A stretch of 41,156 bases of DNA, taken from positions 1-41,156 of the forward strand of contig NZ_JASISP010000028.1 of assembly GCF_030063185.1 (NCBI RefSeq), read 5' to 3'. Positions within the stretch are counted from its first letter, which is position 1; every line of letters begins with the position of its first letter. Both the position numbers and the translations under genes were made by a program. This stretch comes from Arthrobacter sp. H35-D1. Lineage in GTDB: Bacteria > Actinomycetota > Actinomycetes > Actinomycetales > Micrococcaceae. Below, piece by piece: positions 4,513 through 10,909 of the stretch. The notes below the pieces were generated by a model. The model made no database searches. It saw only the letters and a program-made list of their open reading frames with translations, and was not told where the DNA came from.

Positions 4513-5307
4513 CTAGTGGTCGGTGGAGCGCACATAACGCAGGAACAGCATGGAATCGGCCTTCATGATGCGGGCCAGCGTCATGCCTGCGGCCGCCGAA
4601 GCGTGGTCTGCGGTGTGCCTGGCAGTGTGCGGGGCGGCAGGACCGCGAGAGATCCGACCTGCCGAGCCGCCCACCAGCAGCGGCGAGATGGTCAGGCACA
4701 GCTCGTCCACTTTCCCCGCCTCGGCGAAGGTGCCCAGCAACGTTGGTCCGCCCTCGGAATGAATTCGCACCAAGCCGCGTGCCGTGAGTTTGGAAATGAT
4801 CAGTTCCACGTCAAGGGAATCAGTCCCGACAGTGACGATCTCAGCGACTTTGGCCAAGGCGTCCTTGCGCCCCTGCGGGGCTGATTCAAGCGTCAAAATG
4901 AGCGGCCGCACCGGGGCCTGCGTGAACACTGCGAGCTCCGCGTCCAAATTCAGGGTGCCGGAGACAATGGCCAGCGGCGGGTGCGTGGACAACCAGTTCT
5001 CCTCCCGCCACGCCTGGGCAGTCTTGCTGAGCAGCTCTCCGCCATAGCCTTCGGCCCTGATGGTCTGGGCGCCCACCACAATGACGTCGGCGCTTTGGCG
5101 CAACAGTGAAAAAACGCGCTGGTCCCAGGCGTTGCCCAACTGGCCCGAGAGACCGTCCAGGGAAGCTGCGCCGTCAATGCTGGAGATGAAGTTGAAGCTC
5201 ACCCACGGTGTGCCGCTTCGGCCCCGCTCCGGGGCGGGGGCCAGAAGTTCGTGTTCCAAGGCCGCAGCCGAGAGGACGGAGGGGTCGGGGAAGATTCGCT
5301 CAATCAT
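4513..5307 (-). CDS. RibD C-terminal/DHFR-fold reductase, Rv2671-like
   Basis: A 264-residue NADPH-dependent reductase of the RibD_C (DHFR-fold) family without the deaminase domain of full RibD. The features seen are VSFNFISSIDGAASLDG (residues 36-52), DVIVVGAQTIRAEGYGG (74-90) and the nucleotide-binding SEGGPTLLGTF (184-194) followed by DELCLTISPLLVGG. These blocks closely resemble M. tuberculosis Rv2671, a RibD-like protein known to act as a dihydrofolate reductase analogue and to be linked to antifolate tolerance. It is the last gene of a minus-strand cluster with folE, an FAD oxidoreductase and a folP2-like gene, 34 nt after folP2. This context favours a pterin or folate substrate over riboflavin synthesis. 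The substrate remains inference. Confidence 0.85.
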   Translation of the reverse strand: MIERIFPDPSVLSAAALEHELLAPAPERGRSGTPWVSFNFISSIDGAASLDGLSGQLGNAWDQRVFSLLRQSADVIVVGAQTIRAEGYGGELLSKTAQAWREENWLSTHPPLAIVSGTLNLDAELAVFTQAPVRPLILTLESAPQGRKDALAKVAEIVTVGTDSLDVELIISKLTARGLVRIHSEGGPTLLGTFAEAGKVDELCLTISPLLVGGSAGRISRGPAAPHTARHTADHASAAAGMTLARIMKADSMLFLRYVRSTDH

Positions 5308-5341
5308 GGGGAGGTCCTTAACGTTTCCGGTGAACCAGCCC

Positions 5342-6310
5342 TCAAGAGCCGGTTGGAGTGGCTGGTGCCGCAGGATGGTTGGCTTCGCCCATGTTGTGCC
5401 TGAGGTACGCCGGCCTGCGCCATCCCAGCACCGCCTCCGTCATGCCGATGGCAGAGCTGGCCGAGGCAACATTGTGCATGCGCAAAATCCGGGCGCCGCC
5501 GAGCATGCACACCACTCCGGCTGCGAGCGAACCCTCCAGGCGGTCGTCCTTGGCCTGGTTGAGGGTTTCGCCAATGAAGTCCTTGTTGGAAACTGCTGCC
5601 AGGGCCGGAAAACCCAGCGCGGCTATTTCGTTGAAGCGACGCGTGATCTCCAAGGTGTGCAGGGTGTTCTTGTTGAGGTCGTGCCCGGGATCAACAATGA
5701 TCTTGTCGGCCGGGACGCCGAAGGAGAGGGCCAGTTCCACCTTTCGAGCCAGGAAAGCCGCCACCTCGGAAACAACGTCGTCGTACTGCGGTCGTGGGAA
5801 CACGGTGCGTGGCCTGGCCAGCGAATGCGTAATGACCACATGGGCTCCGGATTCCGCCACCACCGATGCCATGTCCGGATTGGACAGACCCGTGGTGTCG
5901 TTGATGACAGTGGCTCCGGCGGCAATGCTGCGGGCCGCCACCTCGGGCAGGAACGTGTCAACGGAGATGATCACGTCGCTGGCGGCCGCCACGGCAGCGA
6001 TGACCGGCACCACCCGATCGCCCTCTTCCTCGGCGCTCAGCGCCGGCCCCGGCGCGAACGGGACCCCGCCAATGTCAACCCAGTCGGCGCCGTCGTCCAC
6101 GGCCGCCAGCGACGCGGCAACCGCAGCATCGAGGGCGAAGGTGGCCCCGCCGTCGTAAAAGGAATCAGGGGTCCTGTTGATGATGGCCATCAGCGCCACC
6201 TGCCGGCTGAAATCGATGGTGCGCGAGCCGAACCGGTGGACCGGGTGGAGCAACGGCGGAGTGTAAAACGGGGCAGCCGTGGCAGGGGCCGAAGTGGTCA
6301 TACCCACCAT
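5342..6310 (-). CDS. folP2: Dihydropteroate synthase-like protein, FolP2 type
   Basis: A TIM-barrel protein of 322 residues from ATG 6310. That ATG overlaps the TGA of the oxidoreductase gene (TGATG) and is preceded by a good GGAGGA site, which argues for translational coupling; ATG 6301 is an alternative. The pterin_bind family signature is present as MAIINRTPDSFYDGG (residues 41-55). The usual DxGxxSTRPG loop is replaced by DIGGVPFAPGPA, and the SRKSFIG motif by SNKDFIGE. These substitutions match the FolP2 paralogue of mycobacteria, which is reported to lack ordinary dihydropteroate synthase activity. The rest of the barrel (ISVDTF, TVINDTTGL, IIVDPGHDLNKNT, RMHNV) is intact. It probably binds a pterin-like ligand, but its reaction is unknown. 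Confidence 0.85.
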   Translation of the reverse strand: MVGMTTSAPATAAPFYTPPLLHPVHRFGSRTIDFSRQVALMAIINRTPDSFYDGGATFALDAAVAASLAAVDDGADWVDIGGVPFAPGPALSAEEEGDRVVPVIAAVAAASDVIISVDTFLPEVAARSIAAGATVINDTTGLSNPDMASVVAESGAHVVITHSLARPRTVFPRPQYDDVVSEVAAFLARKVELALSFGVPADKIIVDPGHDLNKNTLHTLEITRRFNEIAALGFPALAAVSNKDFIGETLNQAKDDRLEGSLAAGVVCMLGGARILRMHNVASASSAIGMTEAVLGWRRPAYLRHNMGEANHPAAPATPTGS

Positions 6311-7587
6311 CAAATATCCTCCAGCGGGGTTTCCGGGTCAGCCAGCTTGGTCGTGTCGACGGTGCGGCCGGAGCTGATGAGCGCCTTGATGGCCTCCTGA
6401 ACGTCCCAAATGTTGACGTTCATGCCGGCCACCACGCGTCCTTCCAGCACCCAGAACGCAACAAACTCGCGCTTCTCCAGGCTGCCGCGGACCACGATTT
6501 CGGCATCCTTGGCCAGTGCGCCGAAGCCGGAGTATTCCATGCCGAGGTCGAATTGGTCGGTGTAGAAGTAGGGGATGTCATCGAGCACGGCAGTCTGGCC
6601 GAGCATCGACTTGGCGGCGACCTTTCCGCTGGCAATGGCGTTGGCCCAGTGTTCGGAGCGGGCGTACGCCCCGGTGGCGGGGTGCATGGCGTTGGCCACA
6701 TCGCCGGCGGCAAACACGTCCGTTGCGGAAGTCTGCAGGCTGGCGGTGACCTCAACGCCGTTGTTGATGGTGAGTCCGGCATCCTTGGCCAGCGCAATGT
6801 TGGGCACCACGCCCACGGCGACAATGACAATGTCCGCCGGCAGCGTGACCCCTGTGGTGGTCAGGACGGACGTGACGGTGCCATCGGTGCCCTGGATTTC
6901 GGCGGCGCTGGCAGGGAGCACGAACTGCACGCCGGCTTCCTTGTGGCGGTTGGCGAAAACCGTGCCGAGTTCATTGCCGATCGCCACCGACAGCGGCACG
7001 TCCTCCAGGCCCATCAGCGCCACCTTGTTGCCCAGCTCGGTGGCCGTGGCGGCGATTTCCATGCCAATCCAGCCGGAGCCGATCATGACAACATTCTTGC
7101 CGCCGCCGGTGAAGAGTTCCTTCATGGCAAGGCTGTCGGCCTTGGTCCGGAACGTGTGGACGCCCTTGAGGTCGACGCCGGGAAACGGGATGTGGCGCGG
7201 TGCTGCGCCTGTTGCCAGCAGGACCTTGGCATACGAAAGGCTGGTGTCGTTGCTCAGGCCCACGGTATGCGCTCGCGGATCAAGTGCGGTGGCGGCAATG
7301 CCGGTCAGGAGCGTGACGTTGTTCTCCTGGTACCACTTTGCCGACAGCGGCAGCAATGCATCCTCGTCCTCCTTGCCGGCCAGGAACCCCTTGGACAGTG
7401 GTGGGCGCTGGTAGGGGATTTCCGCTTCGTCGGCCACGATGGTGACAGGGCCCGTGAAGCCTTCCTTGCGCAGGGTTTCTGCGGCGGTGGCAGCCGTGAG
7501 GCCCCCGCCAATAATCACCATGCCGGCATCTGCAGGGGAGGGCGTGCTTGAAGCTCCTGTGCCTGGTGTGCTGCTTGACTCGTTCAT
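6310..7587 (-). CDS. NAD(P)/FAD-dependent oxidoreductase
   Basis: A 425-residue flavoprotein of the ferredoxin/rubredoxin reductase type. A Ser/Thr/Pro-rich tail of about 20 residues comes first. The FAD-binding GGGLTAATAAETL (27-39) follows, then YQRPPLSKGFL (59-69), typical of the class I oxygenase-coupled reductases. The NAD-binding VVMIGSGWIGMEIAA (166-180) and the second FAD motif VFAAGDVAN come next. The C-terminal domain (VRGSLEKREFVAFW) fits the reductase_C domain. It sits between folE and folP2, and its stop codon overlaps the folP2 start. It may pass electrons from NAD(P)H to a ferredoxin or to an enzyme of the same cluster. The partner is unknown. Confidence 0.88.
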   Translation of the reverse strand: MNESSSTPGTGASSTPSPADAGMVIIGGGLTAATAAETLRKEGFTGPVTIVADEAEIPYQRPPLSKGFLAGKEDEDALLPLSAKWYQENNVTLLTGIAATALDPRAHTVGLSNDTSLSYAKVLLATGAAPRHIPFPGVDLKGVHTFRTKADSLAMKELFTGGGKNVVMIGSGWIGMEIAATATELGNKVALMGLEDVPLSVAIGNELGTVFANRHKEAGVQFVLPASAAEIQGTDGTVTSVLTTTGVTLPADIVIVAVGVVPNIALAKDAGLTINNGVEVTASLQTSATDVFAAGDVANAMHPATGAYARSEHWANAIASGKVAAKSMLGQTAVLDDIPYFYTDQFDLGMEYSGFGALAKDAEIVVRGSLEKREFVAFWVLEGRVVAGMNVNIWDVQEAIKALISSGRTVDTTKLADPETPLEDI

Positions 7588-7716
7588 GATCGAAACTCTT
7601 TCCGTGGAAATTTTGTGTCTCTTGAATGAAAGTGGGCCTTCGGCTCCGCGGGCCCCAACGGGGCACGGCAGCCAGACGCATTGGGGAGGAGCCGGGGGCT
7701 GCTCCAGGGAACCGAC

Positions 7717-8322
7717 CTAGGGGAACTGCTCCCGCAAGGGACCGGCGTCGGACAGCAGGCCGGTGAAAACGGACGTGCGGGTCATTGTGCCGGAGGTTTG
7801 CACGCCTCGCAGGGACATGCAGGTGTGCTCGGCTTCCATCACGATCCCGACCCCGCGCGGGGTCAGCGTGGTTTCCAGCCAATCGGCGATTTGCTGGGTG
7901 AGGCGTTCCTGGACTTGAAGGTCGCGGGAGAAGAGCTCGACGCCGCGGGCCAACTTGGAGAGCCCAAAAAGCCGATCGCCGGGAAGATATCCAACATGGG
8001 CCACACCCCGGAACGGCAAGAGGTGGTGCTGGCACAGTGAATGGAAGGGGATGTCCTTTACCAGCACCAGGCCTTGGTATCCATCCTCGTTCGGGAACGT
8101 GGTCCATGACGTGTCACGTGGGGTGAGCATTTCCGCATAGGCGGCGGCCACCCGGCGGGGAGTGTCCAAAAGATGGGGGTCGGTTTCGTCGCGGCCCAGC
8201 GCCCGCAGGAACTCGGCAATGGCGGCCTGGGCCCTGGGCAGGTCGATCCCCGACGGAACCGCGAGCGATTCAGGGTCTTCAAAGGTGAGCAGGTCAGGCA
8301 GCGACGCGCTGGAGAGGGACAT
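7717..8322 (-). CDS. folE: GTP cyclohydrolase I
   Basis: FolE converts GTP to 7,8-dihydroneopterin triphosphate, the first step of pterin and folate synthesis. The start is ATG 8322, six nt after AAAGGG, giving 201 residues, the usual length. The zinc ligands are visible: Cys97 and His100 in FHSLCQHHLLPF, and Cys168 in EAEHTCMSLRGVQ. The C-terminal TMTRTSVFTG motif is also conserved. It is the first gene of the minus-strand pterin set, but 129 nt separate it from the oxidoreductase gene, so a second promoter there is possible. Its own promoter overlaps an inverted repeat (8333-8361) shared with the divergent SufR-like regulator. All catalytic features look intact. Confidence 0.96.
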   Translation of the reverse strand: MSLSSASLPDLLTFEDPESLAVPSGIDLPRAQAAIAEFLRALGRDETDPHLLDTPRRVAAAYAEMLTPRDTSWTTFPNEDGYQGLVLVKDIPFHSLCQHHLLPFRGVAHVGYLPGDRLFGLSKLARGVELFSRDLQVQERLTQQIADWLETTLTPRGVGIVMEAEHTCMSLRGVQTSGTMTRTSVFTGLLSDAGPLREQFP

Positions 8323-8332
8323 TTCCAACCCT

Positions 8333-8361
8333 TTCTAAAGATTGTATTATTGACTTTAGAA
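8333..8361. promoter_or_regulatory. Inverted-repeat operator over the folE promoter
   Basis: TTCTAAAG (8333-8340) and CTTTAGAA (8354-8361) are perfect inverted arms around a 13-nt AT-rich spacer in otherwise GC-rich DNA. On the minus strand a promoter TTGACG, 17 nt, TAAAGT can be read towards folE, with its -10 inside the repeat. The site is 11 nt from the folE start and about 108 nt from the regulator start. It is a good candidate operator for the divergent regulator. Confidence 0.6.
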
Positions 8362-8469
8362 GCGCAGACTCGAAGCGTCAAGCATGCAGGTAACAATCCA
8401 CCATCTGCCAAGCATGGGCCGCCAGCGTCGGCACTCCACATCGGCAGGAAAGGACACAGGCCAGCGGCC

Positions 8470-9171
8470 ATGAATCAACCCGTGAAGCAACCCTTCGCAC
8501 ACACTCCCGGGCTTGACGAGCATCAGCGCCTGAGCGCCGTCGCCTCGCTGGGGGATCCGCTGCGCAGGAAGCTGTTTGAGCTGGTGCGCGAATCCACGGG
8601 TGCGCTGAGCCGCGACGAGTGTGCGGCCGCGTTGGGCCTGCCCAAAAGCACCATCAGGGCCCAGCTTGACCGCCTGGTGGAGGAAAAGTTGCTGCTGGTG
8701 GAATTTCGCAAAATGGGCGCCAAGTCCGGCCCCGGCTCCGGCCGTCCCACCAAGCTGTACACGGCGGCACAGAGCGAAGTCAGCGCATCGGTGCCACCAC
8801 GCCACTACGACCTCGCCGCAAGCCTGCTGGCGGCAGCTGTCCAGCGCTCCATGGATTCCGGGGAAGGCATCGAGGAGTCCGTGTCCGCAGTGGCCTTTGC
8901 GGAGGGTCGGCGCAGGGGGGCGGAAGCCGGCAACATCCACCAGCTGCTGGCCGACACCGGTTACAGTCCCGAACCCGACGGCAACGGCGGCACCATCATG
9001 GCCAACTGCCCCTTCCACCAGCTGTCCCGCGAACACACCGCTGTGGTGTGCGCACTCAATGGCTCACTGCTCAGCGGGGCCCTCGAGGGTTGCTCCGACG
9101 AACGGCACAGCCTCGAACCCGACGCCGAGATATCGCACTGCTGCGCACGGCTGGTCCCCCAGGAATCTTAA
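8470..9171 (+). CDS. SufR-like HTH regulator with cysteine cluster
   Basis: A 233-residue transcription regulator. The start ATG 8470 (MNQPVKQ) precedes a winged helix (residues about 18-98: LGDPLRRKLFELV, then CAAALGLPKSTIRAQLDRLVEEKLL as the recognition helices, then SGPGSGRPTKLYTA as the wing). The C-terminal half carries Cys180 (NCPFHQLSREH), Cys194, Cys208 and the pair Cys224-Cys225. This pattern matches SufR-type and related regulators that hold an iron-sulfur cluster. It is divergent from folE, and an inverted repeat lies between them. A redox or Fe-S signal controlling the folE cluster is inferred. No clear Shine-Dalgarno site precedes the ATG. It ends 3 nt before a 12-bp hairpin. Confidence 0.82.
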   Translation: MNQPVKQPFAHTPGLDEHQRLSAVASLGDPLRRKLFELVRESTGALSRDECAAALGLPKSTIRAQLDRLVEEKLLLVEFRKMGAKSGPGSGRPTKLYTAAQSEVSASVPPRHYDLAASLLAAAVQRSMDSGEGIEESVSAVAFAEGRRRGAEAGNIHQLLADTGYSPEPDGNGGTIMANCPFHQLSREHTAVVCALNGSLLSGALEGCSDERHSLEPDAEISHCCARLVPQES

Positions 9172-9174
9172 GCA

Positions 9175-9210
9175 TTTCCGGCGGCCACCTGGAAAGGCGG
9201 CCGCCGGAAA
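9175..9210. terminator. Hairpin between convergent regulator and peptidase
   Basis: TTTCCGGCGGCC (9175-9186) and GGCCGCCGGAAA (9199-9210) pair perfectly over 12 bp with a 12-nt loop. It sits between the stop of the regulator (9171) and the stop of the peptidase (9244). The arms end in A and T on each side, so it can serve as a bidirectional terminator, although there is no long U-tract. Confidence 0.75.
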
Positions 9211-9243: not shown

Positions 9244-10743
9244 CTACAGCACGGCCTGCAAGGCATCCACAATGCCTTCACCGTAGTAGCTGTTGTTGGA
9301 CAGTTTGCCGATGCACTCGGCACCGGTCGGCGTTGCAGATGGCATGCAGATATGGTCCTCGGCCTGCTTGCCCAATTGTGAAATCAGCTGCTTCGGCTTC
9401 CAGCCCGGGTGCTGGGACTTCATCAGTGCCAGCACGCCGGCAACTTGCGGTGAAGCCATCGAGGTGCCGCTGAGCAAGCCGTAGCCATTGTTCGGCAACG
9501 TGGACAAGATCCTTGATCCGGGCGCTGCCACGTCGATGGCGTTTAGCCCGCGGTTGGAGAAGGATGACAGCTTGCCGGCCTGGTCGGTGGACGAGACCGT
9601 CACCACGCCCTCCAGCTCGGTGGGCATGTCGTTGCATCCATTGTTGATTTGGCGCTCAATCCCGGCGCTGTCGTTGGGGCTGACATCGTCGGTGGTCTTG
9701 TTGGCCAGGTCGTAAGAGGCGTTGCCCGCGGCCGCCGCGTGCACCACCCCCTGCTTCGTGGACCATTCGACTGCGCGCTCAACGGCGACGCGCACGGCCT
9801 TCTGGTCCGGCTGGTCGTCGCACCAAAACTGCATCGGGTCGACGTAGTAGCTGTTGTTGGTGACATCCATGCCCTTCAAGCCCGCCCACATGAAACCGCA
9901 GATGGCGTACTCGGGATAGATCGAGCCGGCATCGTTGACCACCTTGACGGAGGCCATGCGCACGTTGGGGGCCACGCCCACAATGCCCACACCGTTGCGG
10001 GCGGCACCGATGATGCCGGCCACGTGGGTGCCGTGGGACGAGGTGGTGGGGTTCCAGCCCGTCGGAGAGGTGTCCGGCCGCCCGGCATTGGTGCAGTTGA
10101 CGGAGTTGGCCACGTCGATGTTCGCCTGGAGGTCGGGGTGGTTGGGGTCGATGCCGCTGTCCAGAACGCCGACCAGGACGTTGCGGGAACCATCAGTGAC
10201 CTGGTGGGCCTGGTCCGCCTTGATCTGCACCTGGCTCCATTGCTCGGCTTCACGGGGATCCGCGGCGACGCCGTCGAAGGTGGCGTCGCCATAGAGCAGA
10301 TCAGACTCGGCCAGCTGCTTTTTGCGCTGCTGCGGAGCTTTCTGCCACGGAGTGTAAATGCCGTCCGGGGTGCCTTCCGCCACCGGGATGGTGCGTGTTG
10401 CACCCACCGATTCCACGGAGGCGTACCCGTACTTGAGGATGTCGGAACGGAAGCTGGCACTCTCGGATTGGACAATGACCACGCCGATCTCGGGCCACTG
10501 CTGGACGGCGACGCCGCCGGCTGCCGCGACAGCCCGCACCACATCCCGGGTCTTCTTGGGGTTGCTGGCTTTCGCGTTGACCACATAGCTCATGAGCTCG
10601 CCGTCGGCTGCGGGAAAGTCGACGGGCGTGGAGTGTTGATCGGGTGACGCCGCCATGGCGCTTCCGCCGAGCATGGTGGTTGCGGCCATTGCGACTGCGC
10701 ACAGGGCAGCCGCGGTGGTGCGTCTAAATCGTGCTGTTTTCAT
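9244..10743 (-). CDS. Secreted subtilisin-family (S8) serine peptidase
   Basis: From ATG 10743, preceded by GGGAGGGCG, the protein has 499 residues. A Sec signal peptide covers about residues 1-31 (KTARFRR, then AAALCAVAMAATTMLGGSAMA). A pro-region of about 130 residues follows. The S8 triad is complete: Asp195 (VLDSGID), His237 (SSHGTHVAG) and Ser428 (LSGTSMASP), with the oxyanion Asn341 (AAAGNAS). Six cysteines in the mature domain suggest disulfides. There is no LPxTG anchor or cell-wall repeat, so it is probably released. A CRP/GlxR-like palindrome lies 25-40 nt upstream of the start. It converges on the regulator gene and diverges from the cysteine desulfurase gene. Confidence 0.93.
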   Translation of the reverse strand: MKTARFRRTTAAALCAVAMAATTMLGGSAMAASPDQHSTPVDFPAADGELMSYVVNAKASNPKKTRDVVRAVAAAGGVAVQQWPEIGVVIVQSESASFRSDILKYGYASVESVGATRTIPVAEGTPDGIYTPWQKAPQQRKKQLAESDLLYGDATFDGVAADPREAEQWSQVQIKADQAHQVTDGSRNVLVGVLDSGIDPNHPDLQANIDVANSVNCTNAGRPDTSPTGWNPTTSSHGTHVAGIIGAARNGVGIVGVAPNVRMASVKVVNDAGSIYPEYAICGFMWAGLKGMDVTNNSYYVDPMQFWCDDQPDQKAVRVAVERAVEWSTKQGVVHAAAAGNASYDLANKTTDDVSPNDSAGIERQINNGCNDMPTELEGVVTVSSTDQAGKLSSFSNRGLNAIDVAAPGSRILSTLPNNGYGLLSGTSMASPQVAGVLALMKSQHPGWKPKQLISQLGKQAEDHICMPSATPTGAECIGKLSNNSYYGEGIVDALQAVL

Positions 10744-10767
10744 GTATTCGCCCTCCCGGGACTCTTG

Positions 10768-10783
10768 TGTGATGCAAATCACC
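10768..10783. promoter_or_regulatory. CRP/GlxR-like palindrome before the S8 peptidase
   Basis: TGTGA-TGCAAA-TCACC matches the CRP-family consensus TGTGA-N6-TCACA at nine of ten positions. It lies 25-40 nt upstream of the peptidase ATG (10743, minus strand), close to where transcription should start. Control of an extracellular peptidase by a GlxR-type cAMP regulator would make sense, but this is a pattern match only. Confidence 0.4.
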
Positions 10784-10909
10784 CACATACTGCCAGTGCA
10801 GACGGGCAGTGGCAAGGGATTTAGTGCGGTTGTGGACAAATCGGCAGGCGAATTGGCCGTTTGGACAACGTTTACCGGAACCCCGGAGGGGCAGGCTGCC
10901 TGAATGGCG

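What the first reader, a model, noticed from the sequence alone, without database searches (positions are those of the whole stretch)
4513..9171. Regulated pterin module: folE, flavoprotein, folP2 and DHFR-like reductase with a SufR-like regulator
Seen: intact GTP cyclohydrolase I, an FAD oxidoreductase, a FolP2-type protein and an Rv2671-like RibD_C/DHFR-fold reductase lie in one minus-strand cluster, with overlapping or close genes. No folB or folK is present. A divergent cysteine-rich winged-helix regulator flanks it. Known: FolE makes dihydroneopterin triphosphate, Rv2671 can act as a DHFR analogue, and mycobacterial FolP2 lacks normal dihydropteroate synthase activity. Inference: the cluster makes or recycles a reduced pterin other than bulk folate, or supports folate under Fe-S or redox stress, and could affect antifolate tolerance.
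Basis: partly seen in the sequence, partly recalled or inferred. Interest (0 to 1): 0.7.

Follow-up and report, generated by a model that had tools for sequence, protein, structure and literature searches.

The report
Redox-controlled FolP2-reductase pterin operon
A soil actinobacterium carries, besides its normal folate genes, a conserved gene cluster that probably makes or reduces a pterin compound other than folate under an iron-sulphur sensor, and it ties together two enzymes whose job in tuberculosis bacteria has never been explained.

Summary
The cluster is real: folE, a ferredoxin-reductase-like flavoprotein (FAD), a FolP2-type protein and an Rv2671-like reductase (RED) on the minus strand, with a divergent cysteine-rich regulator (REG). 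The genome has separate folE, folP, folB, folK and DHFR genes, so this is not the housekeeping folate pathway. The conserved core is FolP2-RED: adjacent in 46 of 62 fetched loci of this FolP2 subtype and 62 of 80 named loci. FolE joined the pair twice independently. In 189 FolP2 proteins six pterin contacts are invariant and a seventh holds in 186, but T62 is always replaced and S/R222 became D in 188: the p-aminobenzoate site is gone. REG has ArnR-type rather than SufR-type cysteine spacing. Its predicted operator (TTCTAAA-N15-TTTAGAA, window 8333-8361) is exact in 23 of 23 genus genomes; a second copy precedes a small membrane protein in all 8 genus genomes looked at. Best reading: FolE feeds a FolP2 step that loads dihydropterin onto something other than pABA, RED reduces the product, and an Fe-S redox/NO sensor controls it. 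Acceptor and product are unknown; no chemistry was tested.

The parts
4513..5307 (-). RED: RibD_C / Rv2671-like reductase, 264 aa
   Evidence: RibD_C 8.4e-30; 4xrb Rv2671 2.1e-48; follows FolP2 in 46 of 62 and 62 of 80 loci
5342..6313 (-). FolP2-type pterin-binding protein, 323 aa (TTG start)
   Evidence: Pterin_bind 1.3e-63; 2vp8 7e-56; in FolP2 clade; pABA-site residues replaced
6310..7587 (-). FAD ferredoxin-reductase-like flavoprotein, 425 aa
   Evidence: Pyr_redox_2 7.2e-59 and Reductase_C 1.7e-13; best solved match 3lxd 9.5e-67
7717..8328 (-). FolE, GTP cyclohydrolase I, dedicated module paralogue (TTG start; ATG two codons later at 8322)
   Evidence: GTP_cyclohydroI 5.9e-58; module FolE clade, support 0.94
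8333..8361 (.). Predicted operator TTCTAAA-N15-TTTAGAA between the divergent folE and REG starts
   Evidence: Exact in 23 of 23 genus genomes; shuffles mean 0.01; promoter-like hexamers overlap it on both strands
8473..9171 (+). REG: winged-helix regulator, 232 aa, C-x13-C-x13-C-x15-CC (C-x13-C-x29-C), predicted [4Fe-4S] sensor
   Evidence: HTH_20 3.8e-5; cysteine spacing against ArnR and SufR papers

Best explanation
An accessory pterin pathway under redox control. FolE makes dihydroneopterin triphosphate; the housekeeping FolB and FolK, coded elsewhere, would turn it into 6-hydroxymethyl-dihydropterin pyrophosphate. FolP2 binds that pterin as a normal DHPS does but transfers it to an acceptor other than p-aminobenzoate. 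RED, the Rv2671-like reductase, then reduces the dihydropterin conjugate to the tetrahydro form. The FAD protein supplies or recovers electrons. REG, a predicted [4Fe-4S] repressor of ArnR type, binds the palindrome between the divergent promoters and lets go when its cluster is damaged (NO or oxidants). Shown by sequence: gene order and its recurrence, FolP2 residue changes, a dedicated FolE clade, a conserved palindrome. Inferred: every reaction, repression and its signal, and that housekeeping FolB and FolK feed it.
For: FolP2-RED adjacency in 46 of 62 loci and 62 of 80 named loci. FolP2 and RED co-occur: 40 genera both, 7 and 7 one only, 40 neither. FolE beside the pair in two unrelated forms. 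Six pterin contacts invariant and pABA site lost in 189 FolP2s. Separate folE and folP, folB and folK and folA in the genome. Operator exact in 23 of 23 genus genomes, a second site before one membrane-protein gene in 8 of 8 genus genomes looked at, and that gene inside the module in L211 and L220. ArnR-type cysteine spacing.
Against: No substrate, product or cluster was measured. 15 of 80 named loci show no reductase near FolP2 and 0 of 18 mycobacterial-type loci have it adjacent, so the pair is not obligatory. In 8 of 24 genomes the FolE beside FolP2 was the only one found, so there it must serve folate too. G031 has REG, a FAD homologue and the membrane protein with two operators but no FolP2 or RED hit: FAD and REG may have another primary job. 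FolP2 still passes the DHPS equivalog cut-off. Part of the adjacency may be inherited synteny, and the co-occurrence test is not corrected for a tree.
Confidence: 0.5

Rival explanations
1. Folate salvage and repair: FolP2 joins dihydropterin pyrophosphate to p-aminobenzoyl-glutamate released by oxidative folate cleavage, giving dihydrofolate directly, RED reduces it, and the redox regulator switches it on when folates are damaged.
For: Pterin contacts kept and the pABA end of the site changed; RED resembles Rv2671, described as a DHFR analogue (passage in PMC12855090); redox-type regulator; FolE joined twice.
Against: The residue that meets the pABA part (222) became Asp and position 189 gained Asp, a poor fit for a benzoyl-glutamate with more carboxylates. 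No folate-cleavage or glutamyl gene was noticed beside the cluster, though no systematic search for one was made.
Confidence: 0.2
2. Backup folate operon: FolP2 and RED are a second, stress-induced DHPS and DHFR.
For: FolP2 passes the NCBIfam DHPS equivalog cut-off, 249.9 bits against 162.6; RED resembles Rv2671.
Against: T62 replaced in 189 of 189 and the residue at 222 changed to Asp in 188; FolP2s form a clade apart from canonical FolP, support 0.97; M. leprae folP2 does not complement an E. coli folP mutant (passage in PMC1971073); housekeeping folE, folP and folA present.
Confidence: 0.12
3. No pterin transferase at all: FolP2 is a pterin-binding sensor or carrier and RED a RibD-type reductase; they are neighbours through old synteny, and REG mainly controls the flavoprotein and the membrane protein.
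For: G031 keeps REG, FAD homologue and membrane protein without FolP2 or RED hits; FolP2 also occurs without adjacent RED; catalytic T62 and R63 are lost.
Against: The pair recurs beside different neighbours in several families; FolE was recruited twice; pyrophosphate-side residues N22, R255 and H257 are invariant.
Confidence: 0.15

Closest known systems
FolP2 of mycobacteria (Rv1207; PDB 2vp8)
   Same: Best solved match; same clade and the same lost pABA-site residues
   Different: Position 62 is F here and A there; 190 is L here and F there. In 18 of 18 fetched A62 loci of the order the reductase is not adjacent
Rv2671 of M. tuberculosis (PDB 4xrb)
   Same: Best solved match, 2.1e-48; RibD_C alone without a deaminase domain
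   Different: Here it lies in an operon with FolP2; in A62 genomes the nearest relative lies elsewhere
Canonical folE-folP-folB-folK operon
   Same: FolE and FolP folds
   Different: It is elsewhere in the same genome; FolE here is in a separate clade and FolP2 lacks the pABA site
ArnR of Corynebacterium glutamicum
   Same: Winged helix plus C-x13-C-x29-C (against PMC12343034, passages)
   Different: ArnR controls narKGHJI and hmp; sequence similarity to REG was not measured
SufR (Rv1460)
   Same: Winged helix with C-terminal cysteines
   Different: C-x12-C-x27-C (PMC6034842, passages) against C-x13-C-x29-C; no suf genes noticed beside REG, though iscS is near

Membership tests
Dihydropteroate synthase (FolP) | Pterin-binding TIM-barrel residues (E. 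coli-type numbering N22, D96, N115, D185, K221, R255, H257) | tested here: met
   Six invariant in 189 of 189; D96 in 186, E in 3
Dihydropteroate synthase (FolP) | Loop 2 Ser-Thr-Arg and the pABA-site residue at 222 (S or R) | tested here: not met
   T62 replaced in 189 of 189, 222 is D in 188; the 7 of 9 canonical rows that could be read keep S-T-R. Equating residue 234 of PMC3098144 with 222 is my inference
FolP2 of actinobacteria | Clade with M. tuberculosis FolP2 and shared residue changes | tested here: met
   Clade support 0.97, with subclades F62 0.94 and A62 plus Mtb 0.995
Rv2671-type reductase | RibD_C domain closest to Rv2671, no deaminase domain | tested here: met
Rv2671-type reductase | Reduces dihydrofolate | not testable with these tools
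   Needs enzyme assay
GTP cyclohydrolase I (FolE) | Full-length family match | tested here: met
   PF01227 5.9e-58 over positions 2-174 of 179; below the TIGR00063 equivalog cut-off, 171.8 against 181.6. Zn-ligand Cys/His motifs look intact by eye, motif recalled
ArnR-type regulator | Winged helix and C-x13-C-x29-C | tested here: met
   Window spacing 13 and 29; HTH_20 below cut-off in the window protein and above it in the G031 orthologue; spacing differs slightly in the f13 orthologues
ArnR-type regulator | Binds [4Fe-4S], NO-sensitive | not testable with these tools
   Needs spectroscopy and gel shift
SufR | C-x12-C-x27-C as in Rv1460 | tested here: not met
   13 and 29 in the window (PMC6034842 passages)

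The most novel reading that the evidence does not exclude
Actinobacteria make a non-folate tetrahydropterin conjugate, built by FolP2 on an unknown acceptor and reduced by the Rv2671-type reductase. FolP2 and Rv2671 of mycobacteria would then be consecutive enzymes of the same pathway, which in some Micrococcales has become a redox- or NO-controlled operon with its own FolE.
Probability: 0.35. Interest if true: 0.85.

Novelty: new variant of a known kind. Interest (0 to 1): 0.62.

Why it matters
What FolP2 does has been open since it was found not to replace DHPS (PMC1971073, passages). Rv2671 can act as a DHFR (passage in PMC12855090), but its own substrate is, to my knowledge, unsettled. Of 5 held papers with at least two of Rv2671, folP2 and Rv1207, none contains Rv2671. 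The recurrent pair suggests that both act on one pathway and offers a non-pathogenic organism in which to find the product. If a new pterin cofactor exists it would be common: 184 of 296 class-wide genomes had a FolP2 hit at E<=1e-60 (subtype not checked one by one).

Tried and rejected
Housekeeping folate pathway: rejected, separate genes elsewhere. RED as the only DHFR: rejected, a DHFR_1 gene in G000 and in 54 of 58 genomes of the relatives search. Riboswitch before folE: Rfam gave one sub-threshold match, at 9180-9205, not at folE. SufR identity: spacing not met. Other conserved partner genes: all-against-all ORF clustering (a first try timed out) was noisy with shadow ORFs; it showed RED and REG across families and also some syntenic genes that I did not follow. 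Operator at 2 mismatches in the own genome equals its reversed control (3 against 3), so only exact and 1-mismatch sites are used; no claim is made for the third G031 site (C12) or the extra G002 site. In one search a best score of 4 mismatches is near chance (9 of 120 shuffles reached 4, none less). Structure of FolP2: job taken, still unfinished when last asked. Two papers (PMC6201685, PMC89908) are not held.

Rows dropped or part used: 2 of 9 canonical FolP rows were gapped at most tested sites (7 read); the tree used 90 of 159 F62 sequences, drawn at random; L250's split FolE was left out of the FolE tree; L049 and L148 were left out of alignments because the stretch held a stop codon. Labels DapE, LOG, DivIVA, TagA, GpgS, Paa, ZapE, MtrAB, folB and folK are by eye from translations, from no family search.
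Full report
What is there. The window (G000:C20 of a 4.46 Mb genome) holds on the minus strand folE (7717-8328), a ferredoxin-reductase-like flavoprotein (6310-7587), a FolP2-type protein (5342-6313) and a RibD_C reductase (4513-5307), with a divergent regulator at 8473-9171(+). FolP2's best solved match is M. tuberculosis FolP2, the reductase's is Rv2671. By equal contig lengths the genus includes Specibacter cremeus and Arthrobacter wenxiniae (L195 and L194; an inference).

It is not the folate operon. The same genome has a second folE and folP, followed by genes read by eye as folB and folK, and a DHFR_1 gene. The window has no folB or folK hit better than E 0.41.

The core is FolP2 plus reductase. 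I fetched wide flanks for 54 of the 56 genomes with FolP2 hits at E<=1e-80 in the order-wide search (297 genomes; the other two are the window's own genome and G002), for 8 further relatives, and for 18 genomes with weaker hits: 80 loci. Sixty-two are of the window's subtype (F62) and 18 of the mycobacterial one (A62). The reductase follows FolP2 on the same strand in 46 of 62 and in 0 of 18. The 16 misses are f11 (13), f5 (2) and f10 (1); each of these genomes has a reductase hit elsewhere, strong in 4 of the f11 genomes and weaker in the rest. In 3 it lies downstream on the other strand (22, 36 and 2583 bases away). In 15 it was not found: Nonomuraea (5), Paractinoplanes (4), and Actinoplanes, Winogradskya, Actinomadura, Acrocarpospora, Spongiactinospora and L266 (1 each); L266 has only 163 bases of room. 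The 80 were picked by similarity and are not a random sample; at least one genome (Specibacter) is in both sets. Neighbours differ between families, but part of the linkage could be old synteny.

Co-occurrence. In 297 order genomes FolP2 of any type (E<=1e-45) occurs in 123 and the reductase (E<=1e-12) in 135; both in 107, FolP2 only in 16, reductase only in 28, neither in 146. By genus: 40 both, 7 and 7 one only, 40 neither (Fisher p 5e-12, without tree correction, and the cut-offs shape the counts). At least one FolP2-only genome, G046, is an artefact: its reductase is cut by a contig end.

FolE joined twice. Of the 80 named loci, 11 carry REG, FolE, FAD, FolP2 and RED together (L194, L195, L210, L211, L225, L230, L242, L248, L250, L252, L255), as do 8 of 62 loci. 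In the FolE tree 22 module rows (L062 and L195 are the same gene) form one clade, support 0.94, apart from the 12 housekeeping rows. In Curtobacterium (4), Frigoribacterium and a Glaciihabitans MAG, the FolE beside FolP2-RED falls among housekeeping FolE (node 0.997), so it was linked separately. Of 24 genomes with FolE beside FolP2, 16 have a further FolE match and 8 do not, counting the two overlapping pieces in L250's genome as one gene; some of these are incomplete MAGs. Where FolE is single it must serve folate too.

FolP2's site. In 189 non-identical FolP2s, N22, N115, D185, K221, R255 and H257 are invariant and D96 is in 186 (E in 3). T62 became F (159) or A (30); R63 remains in 2; G189 became D in 189; 222 is D in 188; 226 is E in 189 (also E in 2 of the canonical rows); 23 is R in 188 (numbering from the 5umg alignment). 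In DHPS, T62 meets the substrate phosphates, the sulfonamide sits between K221 and R63, and a Ser/Arg position that I equate with 222 meets the pABA part (PMC3098144, passages). Both subtypes share these changes and form one clade with M. tuberculosis FolP2 (0.97; F62 0.94; A62 0.995). At the cut-offs used, no genome showed both subtypes: three had a second hit, of which two (G081, G137) read as canonical by residue 62 and one (G065) only by its 43% match to canonical FolP. Listed genomes had one hit each, but its cut-off would hide weaker second copies. One subtype may thus have replaced the other. The added acids argue against a benzoate acceptor; a metal site is possible and untested. Automatic annotation will still call this protein DHPS.

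Regulator and operator. REG has C-x13-C-x29-C, as in ArnR (Cys179, 193, 223; PMC12343034, passages); M. tuberculosis SufR has C203, C216, C244, that is C-x12-C-x27-C (PMC6034842, passages). Between REG and folE lies TTCTAAA-N15-TTTAGAA (8333-8361); 100 shuffles of the window gave a mean of 0.01 at up to two mismatches. It is exact about 2 kb upstream of FolP2 in 23 of 23 genus genomes. Over 58 genomes at up to one mismatch the pattern gave 45 sites and the reversed pattern 6 (my sums). Sixteen of the 23 have a further site; in all 8 that I looked at (G000, G001, G002, G006, G007, G011, G018, G022) it lies before a gene for a membrane protein of about 150 aa with no Pfam family above cut-off, as it does in G029. 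That gene sits inside the module in two named loci of another family (L220, L211), which supports the link independently. In G031, without FolP2 or RED hits, two exact sites flank REG with this membrane protein and a FAD homologue, so those two may be the older targets and the pterin genes a later addition. Elsewhere the palindrome decays: 1 mismatch in L211, 2 in L220, 3 in L210 and L250, and 4-5, which is near chance, in the others. Promoter-like hexamers overlap the site on both strands, as expected for a repressor. In M. tuberculosis the ArnR-like Rv2621c (so named) is listed with the transmembrane-protein gene Rv2620c (PMC10470581, table passage); homology of that protein to ours was not tested.

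Reading. The simplest account is an accessory pterin pathway: FolE gives the pterin, FolP2 moves it to a non-pABA acceptor, RED reduces it, FAD handles electrons, and REG senses redox state or NO. Sequence supports the linkage, the changed site and the control; the chemistry is inference.

Novelty. PMC1971073 (passages) already notes that folP2 of high-GC Gram-positives lies outside folate operons and that M. leprae folP2 does not complement. No held paper was found that names Rv2671 with folP2 or Rv1207. Searches for the gene set with Arthrobacter, for tetrahydropterin and non-folate terms (8 of 149 listed) and for ArnR with pterin terms (8 of 344 listed) showed nothing on such an operon in what was listed. 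The library lacks most subscription papers.

Noticed in passing
L051 5308-10218 and L052 (genus g18, family f5): FolP2 of the window's subtype lies directly behind a phenylacetate (paaABCDE-like, by eye) gene cluster instead of beside the reductase.
   Followed up: no
L185 (G031:C1:35000-53000): A genome of the same family without FolP2 or RED hits keeps REG, a FAD homologue and the small membrane protein, with two exact copies of the predicted operator.
   Followed up: partly
L188 7726-8187, L184 about 8038-8484 and orthologues: A membrane protein of about 150 aa (GLDKF motif, several TM-like segments, no Pfam family above cut-off) appears to be a co-target of REG.
   Followed up: partly
window 9244-10839 (-): A mycosin/subtilisin-like serine protease ORF lies between REG and the iscS-like gene in the window; tblastn found no counterpart there in the four wide-flank genus loci L060-L063.
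   Followed up: no
L128 (G145:C1:436000-452500): Same locus with the reductase beside iscS, mnmA and the DnaJ-like gene but no FolP2 hit, as if FolP2 had been lost.
   Followed up: no
L250 (Pseudolysinimonas kribbensis): The only FolE match of the genome is in two overlapping pieces in different frames beside FolP2; left as it is.
   Followed up: no
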